Assembly (NCBI GenBank): GCA_000747625.2
Contig: JQDQ01000239.1
Location: forward strand, 1 to 36,784
Direction: 5' to 3'
DNA: 36,784 nt
Source: Smithella sp. SCADC
Lineage (GTDB): Bacteria > Desulfobacterota > Syntrophia > Syntrophales > Smithellaceae
The position numbers were made by a program, and so were the translations under genes. Below, one piece after another: positions 1-17,611 of the stretch (positions are counted from its first letter, which is position 1; every line of letters starts with the position of its first letter). The notes under the pieces were generated by a model. That model was not told where the DNA came from and did not search any database. It saw nothing but the letters and a program-made list of their open reading frames with translations.

Positions 1-11
1 TTCCTGCCTGT

Positions 12-302
12 CTATAATCGGGATTTCCAGTAATCCGGATGGCGGTGAAGGTGCATGACGGCGAGGATATAGATGCAATCCGGCTCAATGCTGTATAAAA
101 CACCGTATGGGAAACGACTGGTCAGACATCTGTGGACATCATCTTCAACAATTGGCCATGCGGAGGAATAGGACAAAATATTCTGTATGGTGGAATTGAC
201 TTCCAGAAAGAAATCTTCTCCCAGTCCCGGTGTGCAGCTTTCGTAATATTCGATGGCCTCAAGGAATTCCGTTTCTGCTTCCTTGTGAAAATAAAACGTC
301 AT
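12..302 (-). CDS. RelE/ParE-superfamily toxin of an addiction module
   Basis: This 96-aa protein has the layout of the RelE/ParE toxin fold: an N-terminal helix pair (around HKEAETEFLEAIEYYE), a central beta-sheet, and the C-terminal signature VMHLHRHPDYWKSRL typical of ParE/RelE proteins. Family members poison gyrase (ParE) or cleave ribosome-bound mRNA (RelE); the sequence alone does not decide which. The start overlaps the antitoxin stop by 4 bp (ATGA, 299-302), so the antitoxin is translated first. This is the intact version; the second copy near 16.9 kb is broken. The family call is firm and the target is unknown. Confidence 0.88.
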   Translation of the reverse strand: MTFYFHKEAETEFLEAIEYYESCTPGLGEDFFLEVNSTIQNILSYSSAWPIVEDDVHRCLTSRFPYGVLYSIEPDCIYILAVMHLHRHPDYWKSRL

Positions 303-526
303 CGTCCGAACCGCTCTCTGATTTGCGCAATAACCTGCTCCCCTGGAACGGGATTAACACGTCCAGACCGAAGTTCAACAAGCCTACGCTTGGCAACCGC
401 AGCCCATTCCGCATCAATGCCTGGGTCCGGAATGTTCAGGGTGCGAAGGAGGGAGTCCACCACTATGATACGCTCTTCTACGGGAAGCGCGGCGGCCTCC
501 TGAATTATGTCTTTTGTGCTGTGCAT
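299..526 (-). CDS. Addiction module antitoxin, PF09720/TIGR02574 type
   Basis: This 75-aa protein has the N-terminal signature of the 'putative addiction module component' family: a helix followed by LPVEERIIVVDSLLRTLN. The C-terminal half is basic and probably wraps the toxin. Family members neutralise the RelE/ParE-type toxin encoded directly downstream, and the ATGA overlap with that toxin supports the pairing. An almost identical copy (one visible residue change, Q to R, near the C-terminus) sits at 17058-17285, so this antitoxin could protect against toxin from either locus. A strong Shine-Dalgarno (AGGTG in sense) precedes the ATG. Confidence 0.88.
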   Translation of the reverse strand: MHSTKDIIQEAAALPVEERIIVVDSLLRTLNIPDPGIDAEWAAVAKRRLVELRSGRVNPVPGEQVIAQIRERFGR

Positions 527-790
527 AAAACACCTCCAAGTTTGAATACGAGCATATCACAGGATTTCATCCTCTGCAATCATCAAGGGCAAGACAGAAT
601 TGCCTCAAATAAAATGTTAGCGAAAAGATATAAAAAAGTTTAATAATACCAACTTTTTCTTGTCGGAGAAACAGAATAATCTGCACTTATTTTCCCCCTC
701 TCGGCTCCTTTCACTTTTTACCCTTATGCGGCTTGGGTGAAAGATTCAATTCCCAAAGGCGAATGGGAATTGATACGCAAATCGCTGTAG
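527..790. other. Non-coding spacer with hairpin
   Basis: This spacer between the antitoxin start and the transposase remnant holds the module's presumed promoter region and a perfect 10-bp inverted repeat, TCAATTCCCA / TGGGAATTGA (746-755 and 764-773, 8-nt loop). The same hairpin occurs in the right copy at 17505-17532. It may be the REP-like structure linked to the adjacent transposase remnant. No gene is visible. Confidence 0.5.
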
Positions 791-913
791 CGAGGACAAT
801 TAACCGGCAGCAATCGGTTCATTGACGAAATTGAAACAAAAATTAATCATCGTATCGAATTTAGAGGGCAAGGGCGACCCAGGAAGAATAAAATATAAAT
901 CTGTCCCCTTTTG
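791..913 (+). pseudogene. 3' remnant of a REP-associated (IS200-like) transposase
   Basis: An open frame from 791 to the TAA at 896-898 encodes 35 residues including LTGSNRFIDEIE and RGQGRPRKNK. This matches the C-terminal end typical of REP-associated tyrosine transposases (Y1_Tnp/RAYT), with the basic GRPRK tail. No start codon or catalytic HUH region is present. The remnant is followed by TAAATCTGTCCCCTTTT, the exact reverse complement of the sequence in front of the transposase 5' remnant at 20074-20090, so these appear to be the element's two ends. Confidence 0.7.
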
Positions 914-928
914 CAGATACCAGACCTC

Positions 929-1621
929 TTATATTTCTTGTTCCAGCAACTGCCCATTCTCTTTTAACCAAGCTTTTGCCTTTTCCATCGTCGGCGCTTG
1001 AGCCCGGACGATGTTCCAGAATCTGGGAGTGTGGTTGGCTTCAATGAGGTGAGCAAGTTCATGGACGATAACATAATCTATGACAAACATGGGTGCCTTA
1101 ATCAGCCGCCAGTTTAAATTGACATTGTCATTCAGGGTGCAGGAACCCCAGCGAAAGCGGTTGTCAACGATCTTGATCGCTGAAATATCGACACCGAGTG
1201 CACGGGCATGGATTCTTACGCGTGGAACAATCTTTTCTTTAGCCTTGCCGATAAACCATTCACGTAAGGCCTCCCCTCGCTTTTCCCCCTGTATCGCCGG
1301 AATAAAAAAACGCTGGGCGAACCGAACCTCGGATACACCAGATTTAACTACCTCAATGCGGTATTGTCGCCCAAGATAGAGCGCTGATTCGCCGCTGACC
1401 AGTTCCTTACCGGGTGGATGGGGCAAGGCATGATATTTTTGGGAATGGCCTTTCTTCACATAAATCCATTGACGTTTCGATTCCACTACCTCTCTGATTT
1501 TATCCTCAGACATCCCTTCCGGGGCATGCACAACAACACTGCGATCCCGCTCAACGGTTATGGTCAGCTTTCGCCGCTTTGCAGACCTTTTGATTGTGTA
1601 AGCCAAATCCATTGCAATCAC
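929..1621 (-). CDS. YgjP-like (DUF45) zinc metallopeptidase, last gene of the RM operon
   Basis: This 230-aa protein is of the YgjP/SprT-like DUF45 family. The zinc site is visible as HELAH (residues 187-191) with a third ligand at H197 in NHTPRFW, preceded by the family's RWGSC motif (157-161). Such metallopeptidases are often encoded at the end of type I restriction-modification operons; their substrate there is not established. The start is GTG, overlapping the hsdR stop by 4 bp (GTGA, 1618-1621). An ATG three codons in is an alternative start. Full length; translation is probably coupled to hsdR. Confidence 0.88.
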   Translation of the reverse strand: MIAMDLAYTIKRSAKRRKLTITVERDRSVVVHAPEGMSEDKIREVVESKRQWIYVKKGHSQKYHALPHPPGKELVSGESALYLGRQYRIEVVKSGVSEVRFAQRFFIPAIQGEKRGEALREWFIGKAKEKIVPRVRIHARALGVDISAIKIVDNRFRWGSCTLNDNVNLNWRLIKAPMFVIDYVIVHELAHLIEANHTPRFWNIVRAQAPTMEKAKAWLKENGQLLEQEI

Positions 1622-4600: not shown

Positions 4601-4803
4601 TCGTTAATGACCTTGAGCTGCTCCTTCAGCACCGGCAACATTACCACCTCAGTGAAGGTCTGGCGAAAGGTATCGCCGGGGTGCTGTTTGTTATCAAGGT
4701 CAATGATTTCCCAATCCAGCCCGGCAAGCTGATCAAGGAATGGTTTCTCAACATGGTTACGTTCGTCAAGCTTGAGTTGCAAGGACGTTTTCTCTGCCGT
4801 CAT
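1618..4803 (-). CDS. hsdR: Type I restriction enzyme, R (endonuclease/translocase) subunit
   Basis: HsdR is the DNA-translocating and cleaving subunit of type I restriction enzymes. From the chosen start the protein is 1061 aa. It has an N-terminal PD-(D/E)xK nuclease (D154, E168 and K170 in VVIECKSPK), then a superfamily 2 helicase with Walker A QGSGKS (322-327), DEAH (423-426) and the TGTP motif. A C-terminal helical domain presumably contacts HsdM. The frame extends 7 codons upstream, but the ATG at 4803 overlaps the previous stop (ATGA) and follows AAGGAG at good spacing. All motifs are intact, so the enzyme should be active. Two diverged copies of its first ~40 codons lie upstream in the same operon. 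Confidence 0.96.
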   Translation of the reverse strand: MTAEKTSLQLKLDERNHVEKPFLDQLAGLDWEIIDLDNKQHPGDTFRQTFTEVVMLPVLKEQLKVINDWLEDDQVEEVVKQLTASFPGTGLIQNNRHVFTLLLENTSVSENRRTGEKSPTVRFVDFAHRDNNRFIAVCQLKVRVLGTEHHIVPDIVLFLNGLPVVVIECKSPKVKDAIPEAIDQLLRYSEQRGAKGEGSAPLFYYNQIIIATCRQEAKFGTITTHSEKYFYRWADPYPRTVADLGHGSSGPNDQQRLVAGMLDHDNLLDLIRTFTLFSINDKGETIKVVGRYQQFRAVKLAVKRLLEGKSPRERSGIIWHTQGSGKSLTMMFMVREMYRHAQLSHWKVVFVTDRTQLEDQLTETSQSIGFTVKVADSIKKLKELLRSDSSDLVMAMIHKFREADLTEIFPELNASPYILVMTDEAHRSQYAMLGANLDKGIPNAARIGYTGTPIDKTERVFGDYIDKYTMRQSIDDGVTLEIVYEGRTHNAEVSDKKAMDAAFQDVFSDYNLQQRMEVLGYGSRDAYLEAEPTIEAKARDMVTHYLTHVFPNGYKAQVVATSREAAVRYKKHIDNALTEAIVDLEKANPRKLDIGQLKKLTTDVIISGNHNDLPHLKAYSDKSKHDASIKSFKMAFGIEEESVTGDMGILIVNNMLLTGFDAPVEQVMYLDKVIIAHNLLQAIARVNRVGGAGKDKGFVVDYVGIGHHLKRAIDTYDEREQKEVLDTLSFPEEELRELSASHGAVMEILKNHGLTDLNDHDAFFDLFYDEDLRFDFMLAFKKLTSCLNVLFPAKEALAYMADYQTLAEINVLAGKHFRDERLSMKGIPAKLRGITDAYLESKGISVKIEPISILDADFQKQVDVHSRIKTKAAEVEHAIRHHLDVDLDDDPDLQASFAEALAAIFEEFRNNWKKIYEELEKLRARIIRSGKEPTYGLHRKKQMPLFRMFKREIFGEGMPENETLLWTGAEPQPLYGMNHEDRISHLVDLTQKSFLTVERELKLTGFWESIPAQNKLRADLQNILLAAEFAKLPGLVKNRAHIISRIMEIAYKKNDIILYAE

Positions 4804-6131
4804 GGTTTCTCCTTGACGACCCAATGGCCGCCCTTGTCGGGTCCGATACGTTCAATGACCCCGGATTCCCGCAGTTCACGAAGAACGCGTTCGACGGTTC
4901 TGCTTGTTTTGCCGATCTGCGTGGCCAATGCGGCGCTCGAAAGGCTACCGTTAGATTTGAGCAAGGCAATAATTTTCTCCGACATTTTCTCCGACATTTT
5001 CTCCGACATTTTCTCTTTTCGCCGGACGCCGGCAAGGAATTGCACCATCAAACCAGACGCATCGGTACGATATTCCGGCAAAGGCACGCCTGCAGCTTCA
5101 CATTCTTGTCTAATTTTCTCGATGCCCCGCCCCCAGGATTCAATCATCCCCGCCCGAAAGAAGGCATTGGCAATCAGCGGATTGAAAGGTTTGGAGGCAT
5201 GCTTCGACAGCAATTGCTCCACCGTCCAGTTCTCAGGCAACTGGCCGTCATTCCAGAAATATATTTTGTCTTCATACACGCTGATTTGAATAGGAGAGCC
5301 TCCGCTATAGTCTTTGTGCACAATCGCATTTAACAAGGCTTCCCGCAAGGCGGCCTTCGGAAAAGGAAACCGTTCCACACGGCTGATCCCTTCATAGCTG
5401 ATAGACGCTTTCAGGTATTTGGTCAGCAAAAGATCCAAAGCTTTTTCAGCCTGAACAAACAGGCTGCCGTGAATTTCATCCTGATAAAGCAGATCGGCAT
5501 CGGTGCGAAAATAGCCGATTTTGATATACGAGCCGACCACCCACTTTTCCGGATCATGGTGAAAAAGCAAAATGGCGGCGCGTTTAAAGTAATGACCTTC
5601 CTTCAGATTCAGATTTTCAATGAGCGAAGCATTGCCTTCCGCCAATACCTCATCACTCACGCGTCCGCTTTTGGCGGCCTTCGCGCGAAACAAATCAAAA
5701 GAATCTTTCTTAAAATCGACCAGGGCCACCCGGGGCACCGGCACCGCATCCCAGCGTTTGCCCTGTTTTTCCAGCAAAAACTTATCAAGAGCCGCCCCTT
5801 TCAATTCCTGTTTGGTGCTGCCACTGCGATAATAATATTCGCCTTTGTAACTTACCGGATAGGGATAAGATTCCACGACAATCTCAATCAGGTCTTTGCC
5901 CTTTTCGTGAAGCAGATTGACGTCAACAATAATACCCAGAATATCCTTAATTTTGTTGGGGATGTCTTCCAGAAGCTTCCCGGCATTGGCAACACCCAAT
6001 ATTTGGCCTTTATCGTTTTTACCGATAATCAACTTGCCGCCCTTGGCATTGGCAAAGCCGCAGACCCAGCGGATATATTCATCACGCCAGGTTTCTTTCC
6101 ATTCGACGTTTTGGGATTCTTTTGGACTCAT
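4800..6131 (-). CDS. AlbA_2 / divergent-AAA HTH regulator-like protein (RecG-like annotation)
   Basis: This 443-aa protein begins with a Schlafen AlbA_2 domain (about residues 1-125; WRDEYIRWVCGFANAKGGKLIIG). A middle HATPase_c_4-like region follows (FPKAALREALLNAIVHKDYSG to GRGIEKI), then a C-terminal winged helix (387-443). Such proteins are often misnamed ATP-dependent DNA helicase RecG. They are frequently embedded in type I RM operons, where a regulatory or accessory defense role is suspected. The start overlaps the stop of a 45-codon hsdR relic (ATGA) and the stop overlaps hsdR (ATGA). Just before the winged helix is a perfect triple MSEK repeat (375-386), a likely length-variable linker. 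Confidence 0.85.
   Translation of the reverse strand: MSPKESQNVEWKETWRDEYIRWVCGFANAKGGKLIIGKNDKGQILGVANAGKLLEDIPNKIKDILGIIVDVNLLHEKGKDLIEIVVESYPYPVSYKGEYYYRSGSTKQELKGAALDKFLLEKQGKRWDAVPVPRVALVDFKKDSFDLFRAKAAKSGRVSDEVLAEGNASLIENLNLKEGHYFKRAAILLFHHDPEKWVVGSYIKIGYFRTDADLLYQDEIHGSLFVQAEKALDLLLTKYLKASISYEGISRVERFPFPKAALREALLNAIVHKDYSGGSPIQISVYEDKIYFWNDGQLPENWTVEQLLSKHASKPFNPLIANAFFRAGMIESWGRGIEKIRQECEAAGVPLPEYRTDASGLMVQFLAGVRRKEKMSEKMSEKMSEKIIALLKSNGSLSSAALATQIGKTSRTVERVLRELRESGVIERIGPDKGGHWVVKEKP
4973..5008 (-). repeat. Three perfect 12-bp tandem units encoding (MSEK)x3
   Basis: The unit TTTTCTCCGACA (plus strand) occurs three times without mismatch inside the AlbA_2/HTH gene. Each unit is four codons long, so gain or loss by slippage would keep the frame and change only the linker between the HATPase-like region and the winged helix. 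Confidence 0.95.
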
Positions 6132-6265
6132 ACGGCGGCAGGCTCCTTTTTATTATAAATGATCTCCCAACCAAAACCGTAAAGCTGATCTGGGAAGGGC
6201 TTCTCGACGTGGTTGCGCTCGTCGAGTCTCAAGAGAGTTGATTGATTTGCGGCACTTGACTTCAT
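6128..6265 (-). pseudogene. Relic of an hsdR 5' end (45-codon ORF)
   Basis: This 45-codon ORF begins with ATG at 6265 after AGAGGG. Residues 12-36 contain LRLDERNHVEKPF, DQL and GWEII, matching the N-terminus of the intact HsdR (residues 10-35). It then departs from hsdR and ends at a TGA that overlaps the ATG of the AlbA_2/HTH gene (ATGA). At the DNA level it differs from the intact hsdR at many synonymous positions, so it is not a recent copy. It may still be translated, coupling AlbA_2/HTH translation to upstream ribosomes. I read it as a scar of a former hsdR; a functional leader peptide is the alternative. Confidence 0.85.
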
Positions 6266-6293
6266 TTTCCCTCTTTTCTTATACAGGGCAGTC

Positions 6294-7127
6294 TTATTTC
6301 GTATCCGCTACCAAGCCATGAAAGGTTTTTACCCACTCCTTCCACGTATGATGAAAATCCGGCAAGTCCTTCAACATGGGTCCCAACCGGTCGAGCCAGG
6401 CCTTTTCATTCCATTCCCGCAGCGTGTCCGACGTCAGTCCCGCAAGATCAGGCTGCACACCGCGCACACGGCACTTCTCATCGAATAACGGTTTCAATTC
6501 TTTCCATGAAAAATGCTCTTCTGATTTGCACAGGATATACCAGAGATCATACAAGTCTCGTGGACGCGGCCACTTCTTCTGCTGCTGTAATAGTGATCTC
6601 AACTTTTCCGCAATGATTTCTCTTTTGGAATAAGCAGTGATCTGGAATGCCGAAAGATCGGCATAGCCCGGCTTGACGGACCGCACAACCGCTCTATCAA
6701 GAATGGGCTCGTCAAAGGTCAGATGCACTTTCACCTGCGGCAGCCCCTGTCGTCGCGCCCCGCCCCGGCTGTATTCCACGGGAACCTCAATCTGAAAATC
6801 GCCAGGCGCCGTCAAAGGGGCGCGCACGGACAAGCGAATGCCCGATTCATTTAAAACCCATGTGGCAACCGTATCCAGCAGGCGAAGCGACGCCTCAAGA
6901 TTTTCACCTTCGGGTCGGCAACTGAAATCAATATCTTCGGAAAACCGGTAACCTTCATAGTAACAGTGCCTCAGACAGGTTCCGCCCTTGAAAACCCAGC
7001 CATGCTTTTTAGCGCCTGCCTTTGCCAATCCCGACAGCAGCCAGAGGATGACGTAGTCCTTTTCGGCCTGTCCAAATCGGAGTCCTTCTTTTTCCGCGAC
7101 GCGATGCAATTGAGCCGTCGTCATCAT
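6294..7127 (-). CDS. abiEii: AbiEii nucleotidyltransferase toxin (type IV TA / abortive infection)
   Basis: AbiEii is the toxin of the AbiE system, a DUF1814 nucleotidyltransferase; studied relatives act on tRNA or use GTP to halt growth. From the chosen start the protein is 277 aa. The nucleotidyltransferase signature is present: KGGT (47-50) and SEDIDF (63-68), followed by the family block REIIAEKLRSLL and RPRDLYDLWYI. The frame extends 11 codons upstream, but the ATG at 7127 overlaps the abiEi stop (ATGATGA) and is preferred. An ATG one codon later is equally possible. The stop is followed 28 bp later by the hsdR relic ORF. It appears intact. Confidence 0.92.
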   Translation of the reverse strand: MMTTAQLHRVAEKEGLRFGQAEKDYVILWLLSGLAKAGAKKHGWVFKGGTCLRHCYYEGYRFSEDIDFSCRPEGENLEASLRLLDTVATWVLNESGIRLSVRAPLTAPGDFQIEVPVEYSRGGARRQGLPQVKVHLTFDEPILDRAVVRSVKPGYADLSAFQITAYSKREIIAEKLRSLLQQQKKWPRPRDLYDLWYILCKSEEHFSWKELKPLFDEKCRVRGVQPDLAGLTSDTLREWNEKAWLDRLGPMLKDLPDFHHTWKEWVKTFHGLVADTK

Positions 7128-7930
7128 GGTTGTATCTCCGCGTTCACCAGAAGGCCCCACCGTCTGCTGTATTTCCCGTGCTTCGGCATGGTCGGATCAA
7201 GCGGCGAATAGCCGGGCGCCAGTGACAACGCTTTGCGCAGCGCTTCAATATCTCCCAGCCCCAACGTCTCCATGATGAACCCGAGACGTTTGGCAACCGC
7301 AGAATTGCCGATTTTGACGGCATACGTTCTCAGTTTTTTTTCGTCCAGCGTCTTCCAGGAACCAGTCAATGCCTTGGCGATTTCACTCACGCCACCCACA
7401 TATTGCGGAAGATCCAGCCCGTCGATGATTGTCTTCTCCCGGTCCGTAACGCTAAATGGAGTCTCATCTATCCAGTCTTTCATGACGCCGAAGAACTTGT
7501 CCGGTTTCTGCGACACGATCCTGAAGGTTACGCCCAATACATCGCCCGGCTGGCGGCGCACCGGATGATCGGTAGCCACAAAAACGGTGCGGGGAAGCTG
7601 TTCCGTCATTCCGTGATGGTTGAGGGCCGACCAGTAGGCAATCACTGCCGGAGAAACCAGCTCCATAGCAACGATAAACTCATGCAACTGCGGCGAACGG
7701 TCTTCGCCGGAAGAGAGTGGAACAACAGCAAACCGGCCCCGGCGGATGCGCCGAATCCAACCTTTGCTTTGCAGCCGCTCAAGAAACTGGGACGTCGGAT
7801 CATCCTTTGCGTGCCCCAATGCCTCACGGGCAAAGGCAAGTGTAAAAGTAGGGTGCGCTCCGGCTTTGGCAAGAAACGCAGCCTCCATCTTTCCCAACTG
7901 GCCTTTTGTTATATTTTGCACGTCATTCAT
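7124..7930 (-). CDS. abiEi: AbiEi antitoxin / transcriptional repressor
   Basis: This 268-aa protein of the AbiEi_4 family has an N-terminal winged helix (about residues 10-75; LGKMEAAF and SKGWIRRIRRGRFAVV) followed by the antitoxin domain. AbiEi proteins neutralise AbiEii and repress their own operon. It is translated just before abiEii with a 4-bp overlap. Its first nine codons (MNDVQNITK) and ~60 bp of upstream DNA are repeated in front of the hsdR relic at 8158, so its 5' end took part in a duplication. The leader may carry an AbiEi-regulated promoter. Confidence 0.92.
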   Translation of the reverse strand: MNDVQNITKGQLGKMEAAFLAKAGAHPTFTLAFAREALGHAKDDPTSQFLERLQSKGWIRRIRRGRFAVVPLSSGEDRSPQLHEFIVAMELVSPAVIAYWSALNHHGMTEQLPRTVFVATDHPVRRQPGDVLGVTFRIVSQKPDKFFGVMKDWIDETPFSVTDREKTIIDGLDLPQYVGGVSEIAKALTGSWKTLDEKKLRTYAVKIGNSAVAKRLGFIMETLGLGDIEALRKALSLAPGYSPLDPTMPKHGKYSRRWGLLVNAEIQP

Positions 7931-7996
7931 AGTCCCTACAGCCTATTTACGTCACATAAACTATACCATTTTACCGATAAGTCAAGATATTTCCGG
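7901..7996 (-). promoter_or_regulatory. Duplicated leader in front of abiEi (copy A)
   Basis: This ~95-bp stretch aligns with 8129-8223: same ATG context, the same first nine codons, and a shared core reading (sense) ATGTGAC upstream of the start. In sense, TTGACT (7980-7985) and TATAGT (7960-7965) are promoter-like but only 14 bp apart, so the promoter call is weak. It could be an internal operon promoter or AbiEi operator. Confidence 0.45.
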
Positions 7997-8158
7997 CAAA
8001 CTTCTGGCGGCAGTTGTCGTTCGATGCTTATGGTCGAGGTCGATGATTTCCCAGCCCAGGCCGAGAAGCTGATCGAGGAAAGTCTTGTCAACGTGATTGC
8101 GTTCGTCTAGTCTGAGTTGGGCCGCTTGGCTTTTTGTTATATTTTGTACGTCATTCAT
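7982..8158 (-). pseudogene. Relic of an hsdR 5' end fused to the abiEi start (58-codon ORF)
   Basis: This 58-codon ORF starts with MNDVQNITK, the same nine codons as abiEi, then switches to HsdR-like sequence at residues 15-45 (LRLDERNHVDK, FLDQL, LGLGWEIIDLDHK). It runs out of homology and stops at 7982-7984. The intact HsdR has the equivalent KLDERNHVEK, FLDQL and WEIIDLD. The chimera is best explained by recombination that joined an abiEi start to an hsdR start. Codon-level divergence from both the intact hsdR and the other relic shows it is old or of foreign origin. Confidence 0.85.
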
Positions 8159-8223
8159 AGTCTATTCAGCCTATCATTGTCACATAGATTATAACCTTTT
8201 GCCAGTAAATCAGGATATTCCCG
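8129..8223 (-). promoter_or_regulatory. Duplicated leader in front of the hsdR relic (copy B)
   Basis: This is the partner of 7901-7996. In sense it carries a perfect TATAAT (8188-8193), 30 bp before the ATG at 8158, but no good -35 at normal spacing. It begins just after the stop of the reverse transcriptase gene, so it could restart transcription for the abiE - AlbA_2/HTH - hsdR half of the operon. Confidence 0.4.
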
Positions 8224-8237
8224 ATTTTACCACTATT

Positions 8238-11200
8238 TTAAGGTCTATTTTTCTCCCATCCTGCTGGCGGTGTTTTCCATTGTCCTTCTGGTGGATCATC
8301 TTCCCGCCCAACGTGTCGGTCTATAAGTTTTTGGGGGGAGACCTCAGCAAACGCAATCGAAACTTGGGGTTGTCCATGCACATGAAACACTTGCCGATGA
8401 AATGGTTCGCTAAAAGGCATATAGAAGCTGCTTCCTCCATACTGCCCGTTGTTAACAACAATGATACCCTGGAACATGTGGTAATGGAGCCCTTCAGACA
8501 TGCGATCAAACGTCCCCACATCTCGGTTTAGGGCGCAGATGATATACAGATCGCTTTTTGAGCGAAGATCAGCTGCAAGCTCTATGTCGGTAGCGTCATA
8601 ACAGATAGATGCCGAGAGAATAAGCGGACGATTTTTCTCCGCATCACTATGCCACTGATACTCTATAAGCCACTGGGCTGGCCTGAATCCGACTGGCTTT
8701 GGTATAAATTCGCTCTCCGCGGCAGTCAAGTTGAGTTTGCCTTGTTCAATACGGCGAATTTGAAATCCTTGCGCTCTGCTCCACTCAGGAACCATCCAAA
8801 GGCAACTATTAATCAGAGGGGCATCCGGACTGGTATCTTTCGGATGATAGACCTGGCCAAATAACATAAGACACTTATGCCTCCGGACAAAAGGAAGGAT
8901 TAATGGATCAATATCGTGTGGATGAATCGCAAGCTCAGGAAAGATAAGGAGATCGAGAGTTTTTCCGTCATCACGTGTTTGCGGGCGATGAGTTTCTCGT
9001 ACACGCAGCATCTGGGCAACACCTTCCATAATTGAAGCTAAATGTGCGCGTTGCCGAGTTCGAAGGGAGGCATCACTCAACAACTCCGGATTGTTGGTGT
9101 TCTGTTTGTAATCGTCAAAGCTTGGAATGATTGACTGAACAATTCCAATGCGCAAAGTCCGTTCCCAAGGATGCTTTGATTTAATTGTCGGATAAGGCGC
9201 TTTCTGTTCCAGAAACGTGACCGCTGTAATCTTGCCGCGTTGATTAAGAAGATGAGCCAGACGTTTCTCTGTTCTTTGTGATAGCTCATCAATAGATACT
9301 TCCGGGCTTAGAATACCGGCCCCTGGCCATCGAAGCAATTGAAAGAGGAGGTCTTCCGTAAATGAAGATATGGGTAGCCATGGCGGTCCAAAAGCATTCC
9401 GCCCCTGATAACTTGAATACCGCTGTTGCTCCCAATGCGAAATAGGCTTCTTGTATCGCAATCCATGAGATATCTTTCTTAAGCTGACATTATTGTAAAA
9501 ATCAGTTGATCCTCGAAGTGCATATCGGAGTAAAAGACCTATCTGAAGTTTTCGTCGTTCTTCATCAGTTTCACACCAGTCTGACGGCTTGAAAAGATGT
9601 GTGGCTTTACCACCTGCTTTTGTGAACTCAAAAGACTTAGTGTCTATCTTACCAAATACATATCCATCGGACGTCGAAACATCACAACGGACATGCCAAG
9701 GCGTTACTTCATTTTCTGAAGATGCAGGATTTTTGAGGAGCCATGATGCCAATTGAAGAAGGTTTTCTTCCTCAATGAACGGATTGATCGACAGTTCGGA
9801 TAGTACAGCAATAGTCTTTTCGGTTGCTGTAGCAGCATGGTTCTCTAATCCAAGTCGTAATGCAGTACGAGCCAACCTTTCGCTTGCATTGCTTTTAAAG
9901 TTTAACCAAAGATAACGTGCCACAGAAGGTGATATGCGATTGACGTTAATAAGAAACTTATCTGACAACCTTGCCATTGACCTGAGATAATTGAAATCTG
10001 AAATGCCATACCCGGTCTTTGCAATTACAAGATATATTGAACGTTGTTCGAGGTTTGCGGGGATCTTGCCGGCCATGAATTTAGCAAGCATCCAGTAATG
10101 AGAAAGAAACTTTCCTCCTCTTGTTTTTTTTGTCATGTGCTCTGGTAAAGCGTTTCGTGCAAGTAAATATAGCAAAACCTGCTGCATCAAGTACCATGGA
10201 AACCTCGCTCCCGGAGCGTTCGCATCCAAATAGTTTGTCAAAATATCTATGGCCTCTTTGATTAGCCGATTATGATATTCAATGATTGAGATACCTGATG
10301 GGAGGCATTCATTGTCTTGAACAAAGCCTGTCTCAGTTGCCCCTGCACGAAATAGTTCTGCTAAGCAGTAGACCCTAACTTCCCGTTTAGCTTTCCTGAA
10401 CGAGTTAGGTTCCCAGCCTGGACGTAGGATTCCCAATACCTGATCAAGGAACTCACAGTCTGGATACATATCCAAAGCTATACGCAGAAGGCGCACATTA
10501 CCAGGATTTCTAATCCATTCTTCTATTAAAAGTGCGGCAAAAAACTTTGCCCGTTCATCAAGTTGCATTTTAGTAAGCACAAAAAAATGGGGAAGCTCTT
10601 CTTCATCATTGCCTGGCAAAGAGTCTGGCTCACGTCTGCACCACTCTGGCTCATCAGCCAGGAGCGGTCGTAGGGAACGAAAAGTTCTGCGGAACTTTCC
10701 AGCGGCGAACCTGGCGGCTGTGTCGTCCCTCATGTCAGGAACACCAACCAGCAAGCCAGAGTCCTTTTTTTTATCTGGACTTGGCTCAGTAGAATACCGC
10801 TGTTGCGTATGAAAAAAACCTTCGATGGCAGCTATCAATTCTGTTCCGTGCAGCATATCGAAGGTGTCGGAAACTTGACTCTGTATGCGGTTTGCCTCTC
10901 TGGATTGCATAACCAAGAAGCGTTTATCTCTGCCCTCTATAGTAACCAGAGTTTTATTTTCTGAAATTTTCAGGCCTGACGCATGTCTGTCCAATAAGCT
11001 CTGAAACCCTGTTATCATTTGCGCTTTTACATCAAGTTCCTGCATGCCTTTGGGAATGCGAAGCACAATGCGGAAATCGTCCACATAGTAACAGATATCC
11101 TCCAGAATCAAATCACTACCGGGCAATGCATGACCCATCGCTTCCCGGAGAGCGGTCTCAAAATCATATAGAACCACATTTGCAAAAAAACCAGCTGTCA

Positions 11201-12050
11201 CCAAACCTTGAGGTAAAGCTACCGACCTAAAGTTGTCTATGTTGTGATCTTTGGCATAACGATCAGCACGGCACTGATCGGACCATCGCCAATCAAAAAC
11301 GCGCCCGGCCAGTCTGAAAAATGCATCTTCTTCAGGTGTCTGCTGGAATTTAGATAACTTACCTCTTAGTAGTTCCGGTCTTACACGGTCGTAGAACTTT
11401 GAAAGATCGCTTTGGATGATGGCGACTTCGTACTCAATGTCATCAGCCAGGCATCCGGCGTACTTTTCCGTAAGCGGTTTTGCTACAATTTTAGGCCGCT
11501 CAAGGAATGTCTGATAATCCTTAAAATACTGACGATAGAGTTTTGTGCTTCCCCATCGGTGGTGGAGTTCTCCATTGTCACTTTGATCACAAAAGAGTCT
11601 GTGCCCGTAAGCAAGAATTTGTCGACGGTTTTCTGCCTTATTCACGGGGAGGCGTGGACTGCCCATGGCTGTTTCCACTCGATTGGCCAGACAAAGCATT
11701 ATAGCAGTCGCCACTACCTGGTCTTGCAGATCAAGATGTGCGAGAGGACGCAGTTTTAAGTCAATTTTTTCCTCACGGAGGGGCACCCATTTCTCATTTT
11801 GATAAGCCCATCGCTGATTTTTGGGCGCGGGTACAAGTTCGAGAGGTTTGGGCTTCCATTTTTCTGGATCCTGCAGCCGCTCTTGAATATCTCGAATAAA
11901 CTGCGGCAATCTTAGCGACTCGTAATCGAGTCCAAGGGTGTCCGCATACCAACTATGTGCGCGCAGATATGCAGACGTCTTCTTCCAAGCCTGCATGAGG
12001 ACACATTCCAAGCGGAGATCATCAATGGAAGGGCTAAGGTTCTGTTTCAT
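8238..12050 (-). CDS. Reverse transcriptase-nitrilase fusion, DRT type 1 (UG1-like) defense protein
   Basis: This 1270-aa protein has a reverse transcriptase domain in its first third: motif A SDLSKFYD (214-221), motif B LPQGLVTAGFFAN (279-291) and the catalytic YYVDD (321-325). A long helical middle of about 500 aa follows, then a C-terminal carbon-nitrogen hydrolase (nitrilase) domain with the E-K-C set E1039 (FPEL), K1105 and C1150 (SICYDA). This is the architecture of DRT type 1 (UG1) anti-phage reverse transcriptases. All catalytic residues are visible. The start overlaps hsdS by 4 bp (ATGA), so it is translated inside the RM operon, between the specificity and restriction subunits. No adjacent non-coding RNA was recognised. 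Confidence 0.9.
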   Translation of the reverse strand: MKQNLSPSIDDLRLECVLMQAWKKTSAYLRAHSWYADTLGLDYESLRLPQFIRDIQERLQDPEKWKPKPLELVPAPKNQRWAYQNEKWVPLREEKIDLKLRPLAHLDLQDQVVATAIMLCLANRVETAMGSPRLPVNKAENRRQILAYGHRLFCDQSDNGELHHRWGSTKLYRQYFKDYQTFLERPKIVAKPLTEKYAGCLADDIEYEVAIIQSDLSKFYDRVRPELLRGKLSKFQQTPEEDAFFRLAGRVFDWRWSDQCRADRYAKDHNIDNFRSVALPQGLVTAGFFANVVLYDFETALREAMGHALPGSDLILEDICYYVDDFRIVLRIPKGMQELDVKAQMITGFQSLLDRHASGLKISENKTLVTIEGRDKRFLVMQSREANRIQSQVSDTFDMLHGTELIAAIEGFFHTQQRYSTEPSPDKKKDSGLLVGVPDMRDDTAARFAAGKFRRTFRSLRPLLADEPEWCRREPDSLPGNDEEELPHFFVLTKMQLDERAKFFAALLIEEWIRNPGNVRLLRIALDMYPDCEFLDQVLGILRPGWEPNSFRKAKREVRVYCLAELFRAGATETGFVQDNECLPSGISIIEYHNRLIKEAIDILTNYLDANAPGARFPWYLMQQVLLYLLARNALPEHMTKKTRGGKFLSHYWMLAKFMAGKIPANLEQRSIYLVIAKTGYGISDFNYLRSMARLSDKFLINVNRISPSVARYLWLNFKSNASERLARTALRLGLENHAATATEKTIAVLSELSINPFIEEENLLQLASWLLKNPASSENEVTPWHVRCDVSTSDGYVFGKIDTKSFEFTKAGGKATHLFKPSDWCETDEERRKLQIGLLLRYALRGSTDFYNNVSLRKISHGLRYKKPISHWEQQRYSSYQGRNAFGPPWLPISSFTEDLLFQLLRWPGAGILSPEVSIDELSQRTEKRLAHLLNQRGKITAVTFLEQKAPYPTIKSKHPWERTLRIGIVQSIIPSFDDYKQNTNNPELLSDASLRTRQRAHLASIMEGVAQMLRVRETHRPQTRDDGKTLDLLIFPELAIHPHDIDPLILPFVRRHKCLMLFGQVYHPKDTSPDAPLINSCLWMVPEWSRAQGFQIRRIEQGKLNLTAAESEFIPKPVGFRPAQWLIEYQWHSDAEKNRPLILSASICYDATDIELAADLRSKSDLYIICALNRDVGTFDRMSEGLHYHMFQGIIVVNNGQYGGSSFYMPFSEPFHRQVFHVHGQPQVSIAFAEVSPQKLIDRHVGREDDPPEGQWKTPPAGWEKNRP

Positions 12051-13345
12051 GAGTCTGATATCTCCGTGTCGTTCAGCAAGTCGGTGACGCGCTTCTTGCC
12101 CGTGAGCAGGTCTTGCATGAGTCCGGTTTTCTCATGGTTTATCTTAGCAAGACTTAATACAACTCTATTTTGGTTGTTATTTAGCGCGGATAGGAATTCT
12201 ACAATCAGCAACTGCTCATCATAAGGTACTAACGGTACAGCAATACCAAGAAAATCTCCTGTAGTAAACGAGGCTTGGTTAACAGCTGGCTTGGTGATGA
12301 ATTTGATTTCATTCTGAACGATATGAGAATCAAGGAGGTGAAACAAAAAAGCTTGGCTTGAAACTTTGCTCGCCTTGATACGGAAAAGGTTGGTAGTGTA
12401 TATTGTTGGACGACCTATATCCTCAAATATACAGACCTTGCCTATTTGATCAATGCTGTTGATAAAGTTAAGCAAGATGTCTCCATCATCTAAAAAATAA
12501 GTCGCTGTCTTTGCACCCTGCGGATCTTTTAAATACCAGTAAGATAAATTCTTAGTATCAAGAAGACTTTGTTGAATGTTCGTTGATGTAATAACAGGTA
12601 TACCTACATCATTTTCAAGAAGTCGTCGTGATAAACCACTTCTGATAAATGTGACGTAGTGCGATAGCTTTACCACCTCCCACTCCACCGGAATTCTGCC
12701 CAGGGTAGAGTCTTTGAATTTGTGGGTTTGTTCGGTGCGGAGGTTGCCGTGTTCGTCGATGCCTCGGGTAAAGAGGTCTTGCATCAGGCCGGTCTTGATG
12801 CGCTGCTGCTTGGCAATCAACGCCTCAGTCTGCTCAATCGCCCGGTCCACCATAGAAAGTATCTCGGCGATTTTGGTTTGTTCGGATAGCGCTGTTGGGT
12901 ATTGGAAATTTATCTTTTTCAGCTTTGCTTTGTTTAGCGTGGCACCCTTTATCGCCTGATCGACACCTTGAAGGAGGTCCCACTGATGAAGCCCATGAAA
13001 CAAGTAGATCGGGTCTATCTTTTTTGAATTTAGGCCTGCGATTGCCTCATTCGTGTAAAGCGGAACGCCAGCAAATGCCACCCGACCAATACTTAACTTG
13101 AAGCTTAACAGAACTGTTCCCGGATGCTGCAATTTGACATTGGAGTGTTTAACGCCTGAATCTGAAATATGTTCGGCGGTATCAACAATTACTGTTCTAT
13201 TGAGATCTCGGATGGACACCCAACGATTTGATGTCTCCTTCGATGTGTCCCAGAAATTTGGATTGCTGCGCGACGGTGTGCCGCCAATCTCTATCGAGCA
13301 TAGTTCACCAAGCTCTCCTGTTTTCCAACCTTCTACAACACTCAT
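12047..13345 (-). CDS. hsdS: Type I restriction-modification specificity subunit
   Basis: HsdS sets the bipartite DNA target for both methylation and restriction. This 432-aa protein has the usual two halves: target recognition domain 1 (about 1-150) with its helical spacer, and domain 2 (about 215-370) with its spacer. The repeated spacer motif is visible as [12 protein letters not shown] (184-195) and [12 protein letters not shown] (406-417), the internal repeat that makes HsdS pseudo-symmetric. Both ends overlap neighbours by 4 bp: hsdM upstream and the reverse transcriptase downstream. The recognition sequence cannot be read from the protein. Confidence 0.94.
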
Positions 13346-16017
13346 TTCAGATACCCCAAACTTTTCAAAAATTCATCCAGCGTCTTTAGCGTTTCGGCAC
13401 GTTCTGTTTCCAGTTCCCGACTCGACACCGCATACTTATCCCAGAGGTTTTCCACCACGGCAATGAGACCACGCTTTTCAGCGTTGAGATAGCGGTTCAA
13501 TTCATTTGCGGCCAGGTCGTAGAGCTTTTTCAGGATAAGACGGCGCGCGTCATCTTCTGTCAGTTGGCCGCCGATGGCCGCAAGGATGGCATCGGTTTTG
13601 GCAAGACGCTTTTCCAAGGCGGTCTTGTCCTTGTTCAGGGAGGTGATTTTTTTCTTGTCGTCCTTGCTGGCGCTATCGAGGTTCACCAGTTGAGCATCCA
13701 CCTTCCGGATGAGTGCTTGGCTCTCGGCCTTGAACTCATCACCACCCAAGCGTTTGAGCTGGAGTTTAAGTTCCTGTTCGTCTGTTTTGATCTTCAGTGT
13801 TGCCCTGCTCTCTTTAATACGCTTTTCGATGGCAGTAATGGCCGCTTCCTGTGCTTGTAGATTGGCAATCTCCTTGCGAGCGCTCGCCCCTGTGCTGCCT
13901 TTGAGATCGTCAATCAAATCCTTGAGGACCTTTTTAATGACGGTAGCAATGACAGTTTCGTTTTCTTCCGGCTCATAAGCGGCCACTTCCTGCGCCGTTT
14001 CTACCGCCTCGGCAAGCTCGCTCTGGGCCTCGCTGATCTGTGCTTCTAGTTTTTCGATTTCATCCGCCTCAGTCTGAAAATATTCGGCGATGAGATATTC
14101 GTCGGGAATCAGTGTGTGGTGCCAGCCTGTGGAGATGATGGTCTTAAGGTCATATCGGATTTGCTGCCACCAGTTCACAAATACCCCGGCACTCTTGAAT
14201 TCATCGAGGACGTTCAGAGGGATAAGTTTATTTTTGAGTGTAGTCAGCAGCTCGTGGCGGACTTCAGGCATTTTTTTACCATCGCGCAAGCGGGCAAAGT
14301 CATCTCGGGCTACGTCCCACCAGGCTTCAAGCGCGTTGTGGTGCGCGGTGAGTGTTTGCTGAAGAGCAGGGTCGGCTTCAAGTTTGGTCTTTATGGCAGG
14401 CTTTGACTCAATCTCTGCAAGGAATGCGAGGTAGCCTGCTCGTTCCCCCTGAAAGAGCGTGTCGGGCTTTATGCCGAAGCGCGCAAAGTCAGAAGCACGG
14501 GCATCAACCTCGGCCTCCGGAATGCCGCCGATAAGGTGCGCCTGCACGTCTTCGGGTTCCGGTTCGGGCGTATTATCTACATAGCGACGGATATTGAGAT
14601 TATAGTCGTGGGTCTCCACGATCTCTGCTTTATCAACCAGTCGGCTGTATTTGGAAATTTCCAGCTTATGGGTGAAGACAAAGTCGATCTTCTCAATATC
14701 CTCGGGACGCAGTTTGTTCTGGGCCTTGCCTTCGGCGTATTCACGGTCGGCATTGATGAAAAGAGTTTTGTTCTTAAAAGTTTCGGGCTTGTTCTTGTTG
14801 GCGACGATCACGCAGGCGGGAATGCCCGTTCCGTAAAAGAGTCCGGGCGGCAAACTGATGATGGCCTCGATCACGTCGTCATTGATAAAAATCTCACGAA
14901 TCAGCTTTTCTTTGCCTCCGCGAAAGAGCACGCCATGGGGCATGATGGTAGCCATGTGGCCCCGCGGTTTAAGGCTTGCCAGCATGTGTTGCACAAACAT
15001 CAAGTCCGCTTTTTTACCTGTTTCGGGGCACCATTCACGAAAGCGCGTGGGAAATTTGAGGCTGGCCCGACTGTAGTTCTGCGAAAATGGCGGATTGGCG
15101 AGCACGCGGTCAAACCTGCGCACCTGGCCGTTTTCCAGAATCAGGGGGTCTTCGAGAGTGTCACCGTTTTCAATGGTGAAGCGGGTGATGTTGTGGAGAA
15201 TCATGTTCATATTGCAAATCGACCAGACGGTGCCGTTGGAGTCCTGGCCATAGAGGGCAAGATCATTCGGGTCTTGCCCCTGTTCCTCGACATACTGATG
15301 AGACTGGATGAGAAATCCGCCGGAGCCGACTGTGGGGTCGTAAATTTCGTTGCCTGCCTCAGGCTTCGTAATCTGCACCAGAAGGCGCACCACTTCGGCG
15401 GGCGTGTAGAATTCGCCGCCTTTCTTACCCGCGCTGTCGGCAAAGAACTTGATAAGATATTCGTAGGCCGCGCCCAGCAGATCAGGAAACTCGAAGTTGT
15501 CATTGACCAGCACGAACTTGGGCTGATTGAAGTGATCCAGCAGGTCCTTCCATTTCTGGTCGGGAATTTTGGTTTTCCCTTTGACGGCGTTAAAATCGAT
15601 ATTGTTTTTGAGAACCCCGGCCAAGGCGTCGTTTTCTTCTTCCACAGCAGCAATCGCCTTATTGAGCATATTGCCTATGTCATGCTTGAGGTCCTTGAGC
15701 GCCGGGACCTGATCTCCGTTCTCGTCGATCCATGGCTCATGCCAGCGGGCGCGGACAGGAACAAAGAAGGTCTCGCCATATGCAGTCTTGTCTTCCAACA
15801 GTTCCACGATAAGATCTGGCTGATCCTTCAGATGGGCAAAGTCTTTCTTCCGCAGTTGCTCACGCTTACGGTCGAACTCGTCGGAGAGACGCTTGAGAAA
15901 AAGCATACCGAAGATAAATTCTTTGAATTCCGAGGCGTCCATTTTGCCCCTTAGAATATCGGCAGACTTAAAAAGAAATGATTCGAGCTGGGAGATCGTG
16001 ATTTTTTCAGCGGGCAA
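13342..16017 (-). CDS. hsdM: Type I restriction-modification methyltransferase subunit with long C-terminal extension
   Basis: HsdM is an adenine N6 methyltransferase that works with HsdS to modify host DNA. The 891-aa protein has the helical N-terminal HsdM_N domain, the FYTP segment (203-206), SAM motif [10 protein letters not shown] (227-235) and catalytic NPPF (308-311). Typical HsdM proteins are about 500 aa; this one adds some 370 residues, rich in charged heptad-like sequence (roughly 670-830) and probably coiled coil. The start is TTG at 16015-16017, supported by AAGGAG 9 nt upstream; no better ATG lies nearby. It is the first gene of the operon. Confidence 0.94.
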
Positions 16018-16637: not shown

Positions 16638-16706
16638 TGGCCTTAATTCGTCAACATGCGTCAAGAGTGGACCCCCTTGTCTGTTAATAATTTCTTTCCT
16701 GCCTGT

Positions 16707-17061
16707 CTATAATCAGGATTTCCAGTAATCCGGGTGGCGGTGAAGGTGCATGACGGCGAGGATATAGTTGCAATCCGGCTCAATGCTGTATAAAACACCG
16801 TATGGGAAACGACTGGTCAGACATCTGTGGACATCATCTTCAACAATTGGCCATGCGGAGGAATAGGACAAATATTCTGTATGGTGGAATTGACTTTCAT
16901 CAGGAAATGATCGGCAAGCTCAAACAGGCAAACAAAATATTTTGTATGGTGGAATTGACTTCCAGAGAGAAATCTTCTCCCAGTCCCGGTGTGCAGCTTT
17001 CGTAATATTCGATGGCCTCAAGGAATTCCGTTTCTGCTTCCTTGTGAAAATAAAACGTCAT
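16707..17061 (-). pseudogene. Broken RelE/ParE-type toxin
   Basis: The first ~43 codons match the intact toxin at 12-302 (MTFYFHKEAETEF to STIQNIL). A ~64-nt insertion then shifts the frame and brings in a TGA at 16900-16902, leaving a 53-aa product without the C-terminal catalytic part. The remaining toxin sequence survives downstream, out of frame, to 16707. The inserted DNA repeats the local CAAAATATTYTGTATGG block plus ~35 nt of other sequence, as expected from a slippage or template-switch event. Confidence 0.9.
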
Positions 17062-17285
17062 CGTCCGAACCGCTCTCTGATTCGCGCAATAACCTGCTCC
17101 CCTGGAACGGGATTAACACGTCCAGACCGAAGTTCAACAAGCCTACGCTTGGCAACCGCAGCCCATTCCGCATCAATGCCTGGGTCCGGAATGTTCAGGG
17201 TGCGAAGGAGGGAATCCACCACTATGATACGCTCTTCTACGGGAAGCGCGGCAGCCTCCTGAATTATGTCTTTTGTGCTGTGCAT
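17058..17285 (-). CDS. Addiction module antitoxin, second copy
   Basis: This 75-aa protein is identical to the antitoxin at 299-526 except for Gln-to-Arg near the C-terminus (EQVIARIRERFGR). Its partner toxin directly downstream is broken, so this is now an orphan antitoxin. It could still bind the intact toxin made at the left end of the window, or serve as a repressor of both modules. Start and Shine-Dalgarno are unchanged from the left copy. Confidence 0.85.
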   Translation of the reverse strand: MHSTKDIIQEAAALPVEERIIVVDSLLRTLNIPDPGIDAEWAAVAKRRLVELRSGRVNPVPGEQVIARIRERFGR

Positions 17286-17530
17286 AAAACACCTCCAAGT
17301 TTGAATACGAGCATATCACAGGATTTCATCCTCTGCAATCATCAAGGGCAAGACAGAATTGCCTCAAATAAAATGTTAGCGAAAAGATATAAAAAAGTTT
17401 AATAATACCAACTTTTTCTTGTCGGAGAAACAGAATAATCTGCACTTATTTTCCCCCTCTCGGCTCCTTTCACTTTTTACCCTTATGCGGCTTGGGTGAA
17501 AGATTCAATTCCCAAAGGCGAATGGGAATT

Positions 17531-17611
17531 GAAACAAAAATTAATCATCGTATCGAATTTCGAGGGCAAGGGCGACCCAGGAAGAATAAAATATAAATCT
17601 GTCCCCTTTTG
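17531..17611 (+). pseudogene. 3' remnant of a REP-associated transposase, second copy
   Basis: The frame 17531-17596 encodes the last residues of the same C-terminal tail (KINHRIEF, RGQGRPRKNK) as the left repeat, shortened by the ~61-nt deletion. The end sequence TAAATCTGTCCCCTTTT (17594-17610) follows. It is inverted relative to the element start at 20074. Confidence 0.65.

What the first reader, a model, noticed from the sequence alone, without database searches (positions are those of the whole stretch)
6128..8158. Two diverged hsdR 5'-end relics mark cargo boundaries
Short ORFs at 8158-7982 and 6265-6128 both encode the HsdR N-terminal block (LRLDERNHV, DQL, GWEII) found in the intact hsdR at 4803. 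One lies between the RT-nitrilase and abiE, the other between abiE and the AlbA_2/HTH gene: exactly at module edges. They differ from each other and from hsdR at many synonymous sites, so they are probably remains of different hsdR alleles left by repeated insertion at the hsdR start. I do not know of a description of such a scar series. The first 40 codons of hsdR may be a recurrent recombination site for loading defense cargo.
Basis: partly seen in the sequence, partly recalled or inferred. Interest (0 to 1): 0.82.

Follow-up and report, generated by a model that had tools for sequence, protein, structure and literature searches.

The report
Insertion scars in restriction gene operons
Short broken copies of the beginning of a restriction-enzyme gene lie between the anti-phage genes of this operon, and similar copies in other bacteria suggest that defence genes were added one after another, each insertion leaving a scar.

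Summary
Two short ORFs between the cargo genes of a type I hsd operon carry the HsdR N-terminus. Such copies recur: 10 of 83 distinct loci hold at least one, and two control scans gave none. In a sample found with a non-N-terminal hsdR query, 4 of 13 other genomes have a stub plus a long open hsdR, and in one more a Fic gene splits hsdR. Extra copies come from the hsdR 5' end: segment 1-45 gave 11 places, 46-90 one (part of the same L084 stub), and 19 other segments none. Several stubs are chimeras of an hsdR 5' end and the last codons of an hsdS. This is clearest in L101, where both parent genes are present. Stubs are degenerate at near-invariant residues, so they look like scars, not leader peptides. 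Best reading: stepwise insertion of [hsdS tail-cargo-hsdR] segments, anchored by homology downstream and joined illegitimately inside the hsdR 5' end. Three chimeric junctions each occur in two loci, so stub-cargo units may travel as cassettes. A fixed recombination site is not supported. No before/after pair was found.

The parts
7982..8158 (-). Relic 1: ORF of 58 aa = abiEi codons 1 to about 9 (8158-8132) fused to hsdR' from about codon 9 to about codon 50 (about 8128-7995)
8127..8223 (-). Second copy of the abiE promoter and start region, in front of relic 1
   Evidence: 97-nt direct repeat with 7899-7995, 80% identity; relatives shown
7899..7995 (-). abiE promoter and start region; the hsdR'-abiE junction lies at about 7994 and is shared with L030
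6128..6265 (-). Relic 2: ORF of 45 aa = hsdR' codons 1-39 (6265 to about 6160) fused in frame to the last about 8 codons of an hsdS (to 6128), whose stop overlaps the AlbA_2 start
   Evidence: tail matches the intact hsdS tail before AlbA_2 in L030; same junction in L016
8238..12050 (-). cargo: RT-nitrilase, DRT type 1 (Drt1a)
   Evidence: PADLOC Drt1a 1123.6 bits; Pfam RVT_1
7124..7930 (-). cargo: abiEi antitoxin
6294..7160 (-). cargo: abiEii toxin
4800..6131 (-). cargo: SLFN/AlbA_2-HTH gene
   Evidence: Pfam PF04326, PF13749, PF13412
1618..4803 (-). intact hsdR
   Evidence: Pfam HSDR_N, SWI2_SNF2
12047..13345 (-). hsdS
   Evidence: Pfam Methylase_S
13342..16017 (-). hsdM
   Evidence: Pfam N6_Mtase, HsdM_N
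929..1621 (-). YgjP-like metallopeptidase gene that follows hsdR in many of the loci

Best explanation
The relics are scars of stepwise loading of defence genes into the hsdS-hsdR interval of type I restriction operons. In the proposed founding event, incoming DNA from another hsd operon, carrying [3' end of hsdS - cargo - hsdR], pairs with the resident hsdR through the shared hsdR sequence. Its other end, with no homology at that place, is joined illegitimately inside the 5' part of the resident hsdR (about codon 20-80). The result is resident hsdR stub :: donor hsdS tail - cargo - intact hsdR. The next event acts on the intact copy, so new cargo enters next to hsdR and older cargo moves towards hsdS, each step leaving a stub. 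When the join falls in a cargo gene, that gene's 5' stub is left instead. Shown: stubs, their chimeric hsdR'::hsdS' structure in several loci, recurrence, position next to cargo, relaxed constraint. Inferred: homology-facilitated illegitimate recombination as the mechanism, and the direction of loading. Not explained: why all stubs are short.
For: Recurrence: 10 of 83 distinct loci with at least one extra hsdR N-terminal copy, 0 hits in reversed and opposite-strand controls (the profile was seeded with copies from the window, G229 and G367, so seven of the ten loci are independent of the seed). Sample drawn with a non-N-terminal query: stub plus long open hsdR in 4 of 13 other genomes, and hsdR split by Fic in one more. 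Segment control: hsdR 1-45 gives 11 extra places in 76 loci and 46-90 gives 1; 19 other 45-residue hsdR segments, hsdM 1-45 and YgjP 1-45 give 0. Chimera with both parents in one locus: the L101 stub matches its own hsdR over 102 columns, then its own hsdS C-terminal region, before the NTase/HepT pair. Further hsdS-like tails: L031a and L031b, window relic 2 and L016. L084 has a weak hsdR' match joined to the 3' tail of a GmrSD gene that is intact further down: it looks like an insertion that brought no new whole gene. 5' stubs of other genes: AlbA_2 in L016, RhuM in L021 and L028, DarT in L092, Fic in L018. 8 of 12 stubs score higher against another locus's hsdR than against the hsdR, or for L019 the other stub, of their own locus (the L084x row aligned to the other L084 stub and is dropped), against local duplication. 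Stub loci have longer hsdS-hsdR intervals than other loci with an interval of 285 bases or more (7 against 37, one-sided p = 0.012).
Against: No before/after pair was found, so no insertion event is seen directly. A test whether the stub, rather than the intact 5' end, matches the relatives of the hsdR body gave 3 of 9, or 3 of 8 without the L016 row that was out of register: inconclusive, leaning against. Short stubs are not predicted by this mechanism alone, and identical-run density does not peak at the hsdR 5' end. Cargo genes leave 3' remains as well as 5' stubs (AlbA_2-type 3' parts in L042 and L079, both ends of Fic in L018), so plain deletion also acts here. Microhomology at the joins could not be resolved. 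Three junctions are shared by two loci each, so independent events are fewer than stubs.
Confidence: 0.66

Rival explanations
1. Collapse of tandem hsd operons. Two hsd operons with different cargo stood side by side, and a deletion from inside the first hsdR to the end of the second hsdS fused them, giving hsdR'::hsdS'-cargo-hsdR.
For: Gives the same chimera with both ends near gene ends. Large hsdR deletions occur: in L053 and L082 about 70 codons of hsdR run directly into YgjP. L024, L025 and L076 have a distant second methyltransferase gene (26-31%) upstream.
Against: No locus showed two hsd sets of this family, though only up to 10 kb on each side was held. It does not by itself give RhuM, AlbA_2 or DarT 5' stubs, nor the hsdR'::GmrSD tail of L084.
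Confidence: 0.15
2. The stubs are functional leader ORFs that keep translation coupled along the operon or give an HsdR-like peptide.
For: Several stubs keep a start codon, and their stop overlaps or touches the next cargo start (window relic 2, L021, L031a, L031b).
Against: 25 of 214 near-invariant positions changed in stubs against 33 of 1200 in intact copies (p = 1.5e-7); 9 of 96 against 2 of 192 in the sample without motif bias (p = 0.001). L016, L071 and L084x have no in-frame start codon and L055 a frameshift. The L101 hsdS tail is out of frame.
Confidence: 0.08
3. Local duplication: the hsdR 5' end was copied within the operon, with or without cargo, by slippage or unequal exchange.
For: L031a and L071 are closest to their own hsdR, and L021 and L028 tie.
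Against: 8 of 12 stubs are closer to another locus's hsdR, some by a small margin; hsdS tails are fused to several stubs.
Confidence: 0.07

Closest known systems
[quoted passage not shown] 2017, PMC5361080; passages seen)
   Same: Successive insertion of modules at one place, anchored by homology on one side and joined illegitimately on the other, leaving an ordered array of remains; the authors propose a mechanism akin to homology-facilitated illegitimate recombination.
   Different: There the anchor is upstream and immunity genes, and in one case an effector 3' end, remain. Here the anchor would be downstream (hsdR), 5' stubs of hsdR fused to hsdS tails remain, and whole defence genes accumulate.
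Defence genes embedded in type I operons (prrC in EcoprrI, PMC3874165; darTG2 between hsdS and hsdR in the RptR island, PMC12255303; passages seen)
   Same: Cargo of the same kind inside the operon; the RptR paper calls the hsdS-hsdR site a potential recombination hotspot.
   Different: The passages seen describe no hsdR or hsdS remains and no mechanism of entry.
Homology-facilitated illegitimate recombination (PMC3240628; start of abstract seen in a search listing)
   Same: Homology at one end, illegitimate join at the other.
   Different: Known there from transformation and conjugation experiments; here inferred from scars only.

Membership tests
Type I restriction-modification operon with embedded cargo | hsdM, hsdS and hsdR in a row on one strand | tested here: met
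Type I restriction-modification operon with embedded cargo | defence genes between hsdS and hsdR | tested here: met
   DRT1a, AbiE (PADLOC), SLFN_AlbA_2
Array formed by homology-facilitated illegitimate recombination | one end joined through homology | tested here: inconclusive
   no before/after pair; polarity test 3 of 9, one row out of register
Array formed by homology-facilitated illegitimate recombination | other end joined between non-homologous sequences | tested here: met
   hsdR'::hsdS' joins, hsdR'::GmrSD tail
Array formed by homology-facilitated illegitimate recombination | short microhomology at the illegitimate join (recalled feature) | tested here: inconclusive
   parent alleles too diverged to place joins to the base
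Conserved leader peptide | peptide under purifying selection | tested here: not met
Site-specific cassette insertion | constant insertion position | tested here: not met
   stub ends from about codon 20 to 80

The most novel reading that the evidence does not exclude
The stub makes the cargo portable. Once [hsdR stub - cargo] stands in front of hsdR, the cargo is flanked by two copies of the hsdR 5' end. Ordinary homologous recombination can then take it out as a circle or move it into any other hsd operon with an hsdR, re-creating stub - cargo - hsdR. Defence genes would thus move as cassettes without an integrase, in ordered arrays whose address is the hsdR 5' end. Support: three chimeric junctions (hsdR'-abiE; hsdR'::hsdS'-AlbA_2; hsdR'::tail-RhuM) each occur in two loci; for the first two the neighbours differ, and for the first the module order too.
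Probability: 0.3. Interest if true: 0.82.

Novelty: new variant of a known kind. Interest (0 to 1): 0.62.

Why it matters
That type I operons carry embedded defence genes is known, but how these genes get in is, as far as the papers seen here go, open. The scars give a readable record: they mark entry points, suggest the order of entry, and point to another hsd operon as donor. They give a simple search rule (5' stubs of the downstream gene, fused to tails of the upstream gene) that can be applied to other defence islands. If stubs act as homologous arms, they would explain how unrelated defence genes exchange places between operons without a recombinase.

Tried and rejected
A fixed recombination hotspot at the hsdR start was tested through runs of identical DNA in 1830 pairs of 61 hsdR genes. 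Codons 16-30 rank 10th to 14th of 71 bins; the highest bins start at codons 316, 331, 391 and 466. Rejected.

A first conservation test was biased: its pattern dropped eight variant intact copies, and the loci themselves had been found with exact motifs. It was repeated with 75 intact copies (of 84 sequences; L014, L017, L019, L047, L053, L078, L081, L082 and L095 left out as duplicate, broken or cut) and with a sample drawn without the motif. Only one search is used. Motif bias remains in its larger set. In its smaller set, 4 of the 9 stub changes are the window's own.

The systematic search for gene fragments was noisy, because antisense ORFs of two loci matched many genes, and its output was cut. 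Only named rows on the operon strand are used, with no total.

In one search the L084x row aligned to the neighbouring stub and was dropped before the count. The donor/recipient polarity test gave 3 of 9, with the L016 row out of register; inconclusive.

The segment test leaves out L019, which has no full hsdR, and missed the weak L084x stub.

Viral contigs: 35 stretches matched a pattern, none confirmed. E. coli genomes: no DNA match to hsdR. Plasmids: 20 records, not followed up. One genome class (41 genomes) searched with the distant L101 hsdR held no second one.

Literature: searches listed no paper on hsdR 5' stubs as far as titles and abstracts show. The library is open access only. The six papers listed were not opened. 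Of two reviews only term-search passages were seen.
Full report
WHAT IS THERE. On the minus strand the operon reads hsdM, hsdS, DRT1 RT-nitrilase, relic 1, abiEi, abiEii, relic 2, SLFN/AlbA_2-HTH gene, hsdR, YgjP. The relics are ORFs of 58 and 45 codons at the stated coordinates. With relic 1 as query, the own genome holds relic 1, hsdR (E 5.6e-13) and relic 2 (E 2.0e-9). Over 22 shared codons, relic 1 differs from hsdR by 7 synonymous and 4 nonsynonymous codons, relic 2 by 9 and 4, and the relics from each other by 7 and 5.

ANATOMY OF RELIC 1. It begins with a copy of the abiE promoter and about nine codons of abiEi (97-nt repeat, 80%). The abiEi start is native, because L013, L030 and L055 have it in front of their own abiEi. 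It then passes into hsdR at about codon 9 and follows hsdR, with small gaps, to about codon 50, where the promoter of the present abiE begins. L030 has the same hsdR'-abiE junction.

ANATOMY OF RELIC 2. It follows hsdR to about codon 39, then reads YNKKEPAAV and stops on the start codon of AlbA_2. In L030 an intact hsdS stands directly before AlbA_2 and ends LNKKETACI, also stopping on that start codon; the DNA of this stretch aligns. Relic 2 is therefore best read as a fusion of an hsdR 5' end and an hsdS 3' end. L016, from the same family of organisms, has the same junction, with the following AlbA_2 gene itself cut after 47 codons.

RECURRENCE. A profile of the N-terminal block, seeded with ten sequences including the window copies and those of G229 and G367, was run over the window, L013, L015 and 80 GTDB loci: 83 distinct loci after removing one duplicate. 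Ten hold at least one copy besides the one at the hsdR position: window (2), L016, L019, L021, L028, L030, L031 (2), L055, L071, L084 (2, one weak at 8.7 bits). The reversed sequences and the opposite strand gave no hit of 8 bits or more. L019 holds two stubs and no full hsdR in its 7.5-kb contig. Each stub lies directly before a whole or broken cargo gene, except the second stub of L019. Of the 83 loci, 62 hold an hsdS in the stretch: 18 have hsdR within 50 bases and 44 have an interval of 285 bases or more (for L019 measured to its first stub). Seven of the 44 and none of the 18 have stubs; the other three stub loci have no hsdS in the stretch held. Among the 44, stub loci have longer intervals (one-sided p = 0.012).

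SAMPLE WITHOUT MOTIF BIAS. The 80 loci were found through exact N-terminal motifs. I therefore searched with hsdR residues 44-308 in 155, 395, 42, 85 and 277 genomes, overlapping sets. Fifteen genomes had the gene, the window's own among them; one (G515) has no upstream DNA. Of the 13 others, G229, G367, G511 and G383 have a stub and a long open hsdR. In G554 the hsdR 5' end is separated from the hsdR body by a Fic gene. Eight have none, one of them (G142) with only 1.4 kb upstream held. Only G467, G383, G554 and G758 are new; two of these four (G383, G554) show the feature.

THE CLEAREST CASE. L101 (G383) has a distant hsdR, 54% identical over the query. Its stub matches its own hsdR over 102 columns. 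It then matches the C-terminal region of its own hsdS over 88, out of frame, and is followed by a nucleotidyltransferase/HepT pair and the intact hsdR. Both parents of the chimera are in the same operon.

WHERE STUBS COME FROM. With 45-residue segments of every third intact protein as queries, hsdR 1-45 gave 11 extra places in 76 loci and 46-90 gave 1, the continuation of the L084 stub. The other 19 hsdR segments gave 0, as did hsdM 1-45 (58 loci) and YgjP 1-45 (69 loci). hsdM 841-885 gave 2 and YgjP 181-225 gave 1. So the hsdR remains found are 5' ends only, and short. Cargo genes leave 5' stubs too: AlbA_2 in L016, RhuM in L021 and L028, DarT in L092, Fic in L018. They also leave 3' parts (AlbA_2-type in L042 and L079, Fic in L018), so the one-sidedness holds for hsdR, not for cargo.

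ARE THEY FUNCTIONAL PEPTIDES? At 16 positions conserved in at least 85% of 75 intact copies, 15 stubs differ 25 of 214 times and intact copies 33 of 1200 (p = 1.5e-7). In the sample without motif bias the counts are 9 of 96 and 2 of 192 (p = 0.001). L016, L071 and L084x have no in-frame start codon and L055 a frameshift. Some stubs keep a start, and a stop that overlaps the next start, so a role in translational coupling is not excluded for single cases.

MECHANISM. The structure hsdR'::hsdS' tail - cargo - hsdR follows if donor DNA [hsdS tail - cargo - hsdR] is anchored in hsdR and its other end is joined illegitimately in the resident hsdR. A join upstream of hsdR would leave a cargo stub instead, as seen. 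The L084 scar, where a weak hsdR' match runs into the 3' tail of a GmrSD gene and then into a second stub, looks like an event that brought nothing useful. Against local duplication, 8 of 12 stubs score higher against another locus's hsdR than against the hsdR, or for L019 the other stub, of their own locus; two tie and two prefer their own, and some margins are small. Against certainty: no before/after pair, an inconclusive polarity test, and no explanation for the short length, since identical DNA runs do not peak at the 5' end. That longer hsdR fragments are lost by selection is only a guess.

CASSETTE READING. Three junctions occur twice: hsdR'-abiE (window, L030), hsdR'::hsdS'-AlbA_2 (window, L016), hsdR'::tail-RhuM (L021, L055, the last with one base missing). 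Module order differs: in the window stub-abiE precedes stub-AlbA_2, whereas in L030 AlbA_2 follows hsdS and precedes stub-abiE. This suits units that move with their stub by homologous recombination, but common descent with later losses is not excluded.

KNOWN AND NEW. Embedding of defence genes between hsdS and hsdR is in print (PMC12255303; prrC in a type I operon, PMC3874165; passages). Sequential module insertion akin to homology-facilitated illegitimate recombination is proposed for T6SS immunity arrays (PMC5361080; passages). I found no description of hsdR 5' stubs or hsdR'::hsdS' chimeras in the listings of searches of an open-access library.

Noticed in passing
window 1-913 and 16696-17611: Direct repeats of about 0.9 kb flank the whole hsd island (86% identical over 977 aligned columns; blocks of 300, 177 and 85 nt at 98-99%). 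The first copy holds a ParE-like toxin ORF (12-302, minus; below the Pfam cut-off).
   Followed up: partly
L060:761-3183 (minus strand): A 46-codon 5' stub of an unrelated gene (609 codons), then DNA that by eye holds a small helix-turn-helix-like gene, then the intact gene: the same stub pattern away from hsdR.
   Followed up: partly
L053 about 10004-10306 and L082 about 658-1328: About 70 codons of hsdR run directly into the YgjP gene; the rest of hsdR is missing.
   Followed up: no
L037:1829-1915 and L043:3690-3782: Extra 3' tails of hsdM before hsdS, perhaps the same kind of scar at the hsdM-hsdS junction.
   Followed up: no
window about 7992, and before abiEi in L013, L030, L055: The abiE module starts at nearly the same base (AAATATCTTGAC or close, the likely -35 region) after three different upstream contexts; window and L030 share one.
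   Followed up: partly
L084:7422-7942: Two hsdR stubs in a row, the first (weak match) joined to the 3' tail of a GmrSD gene that is intact downstream.
   Followed up: partly
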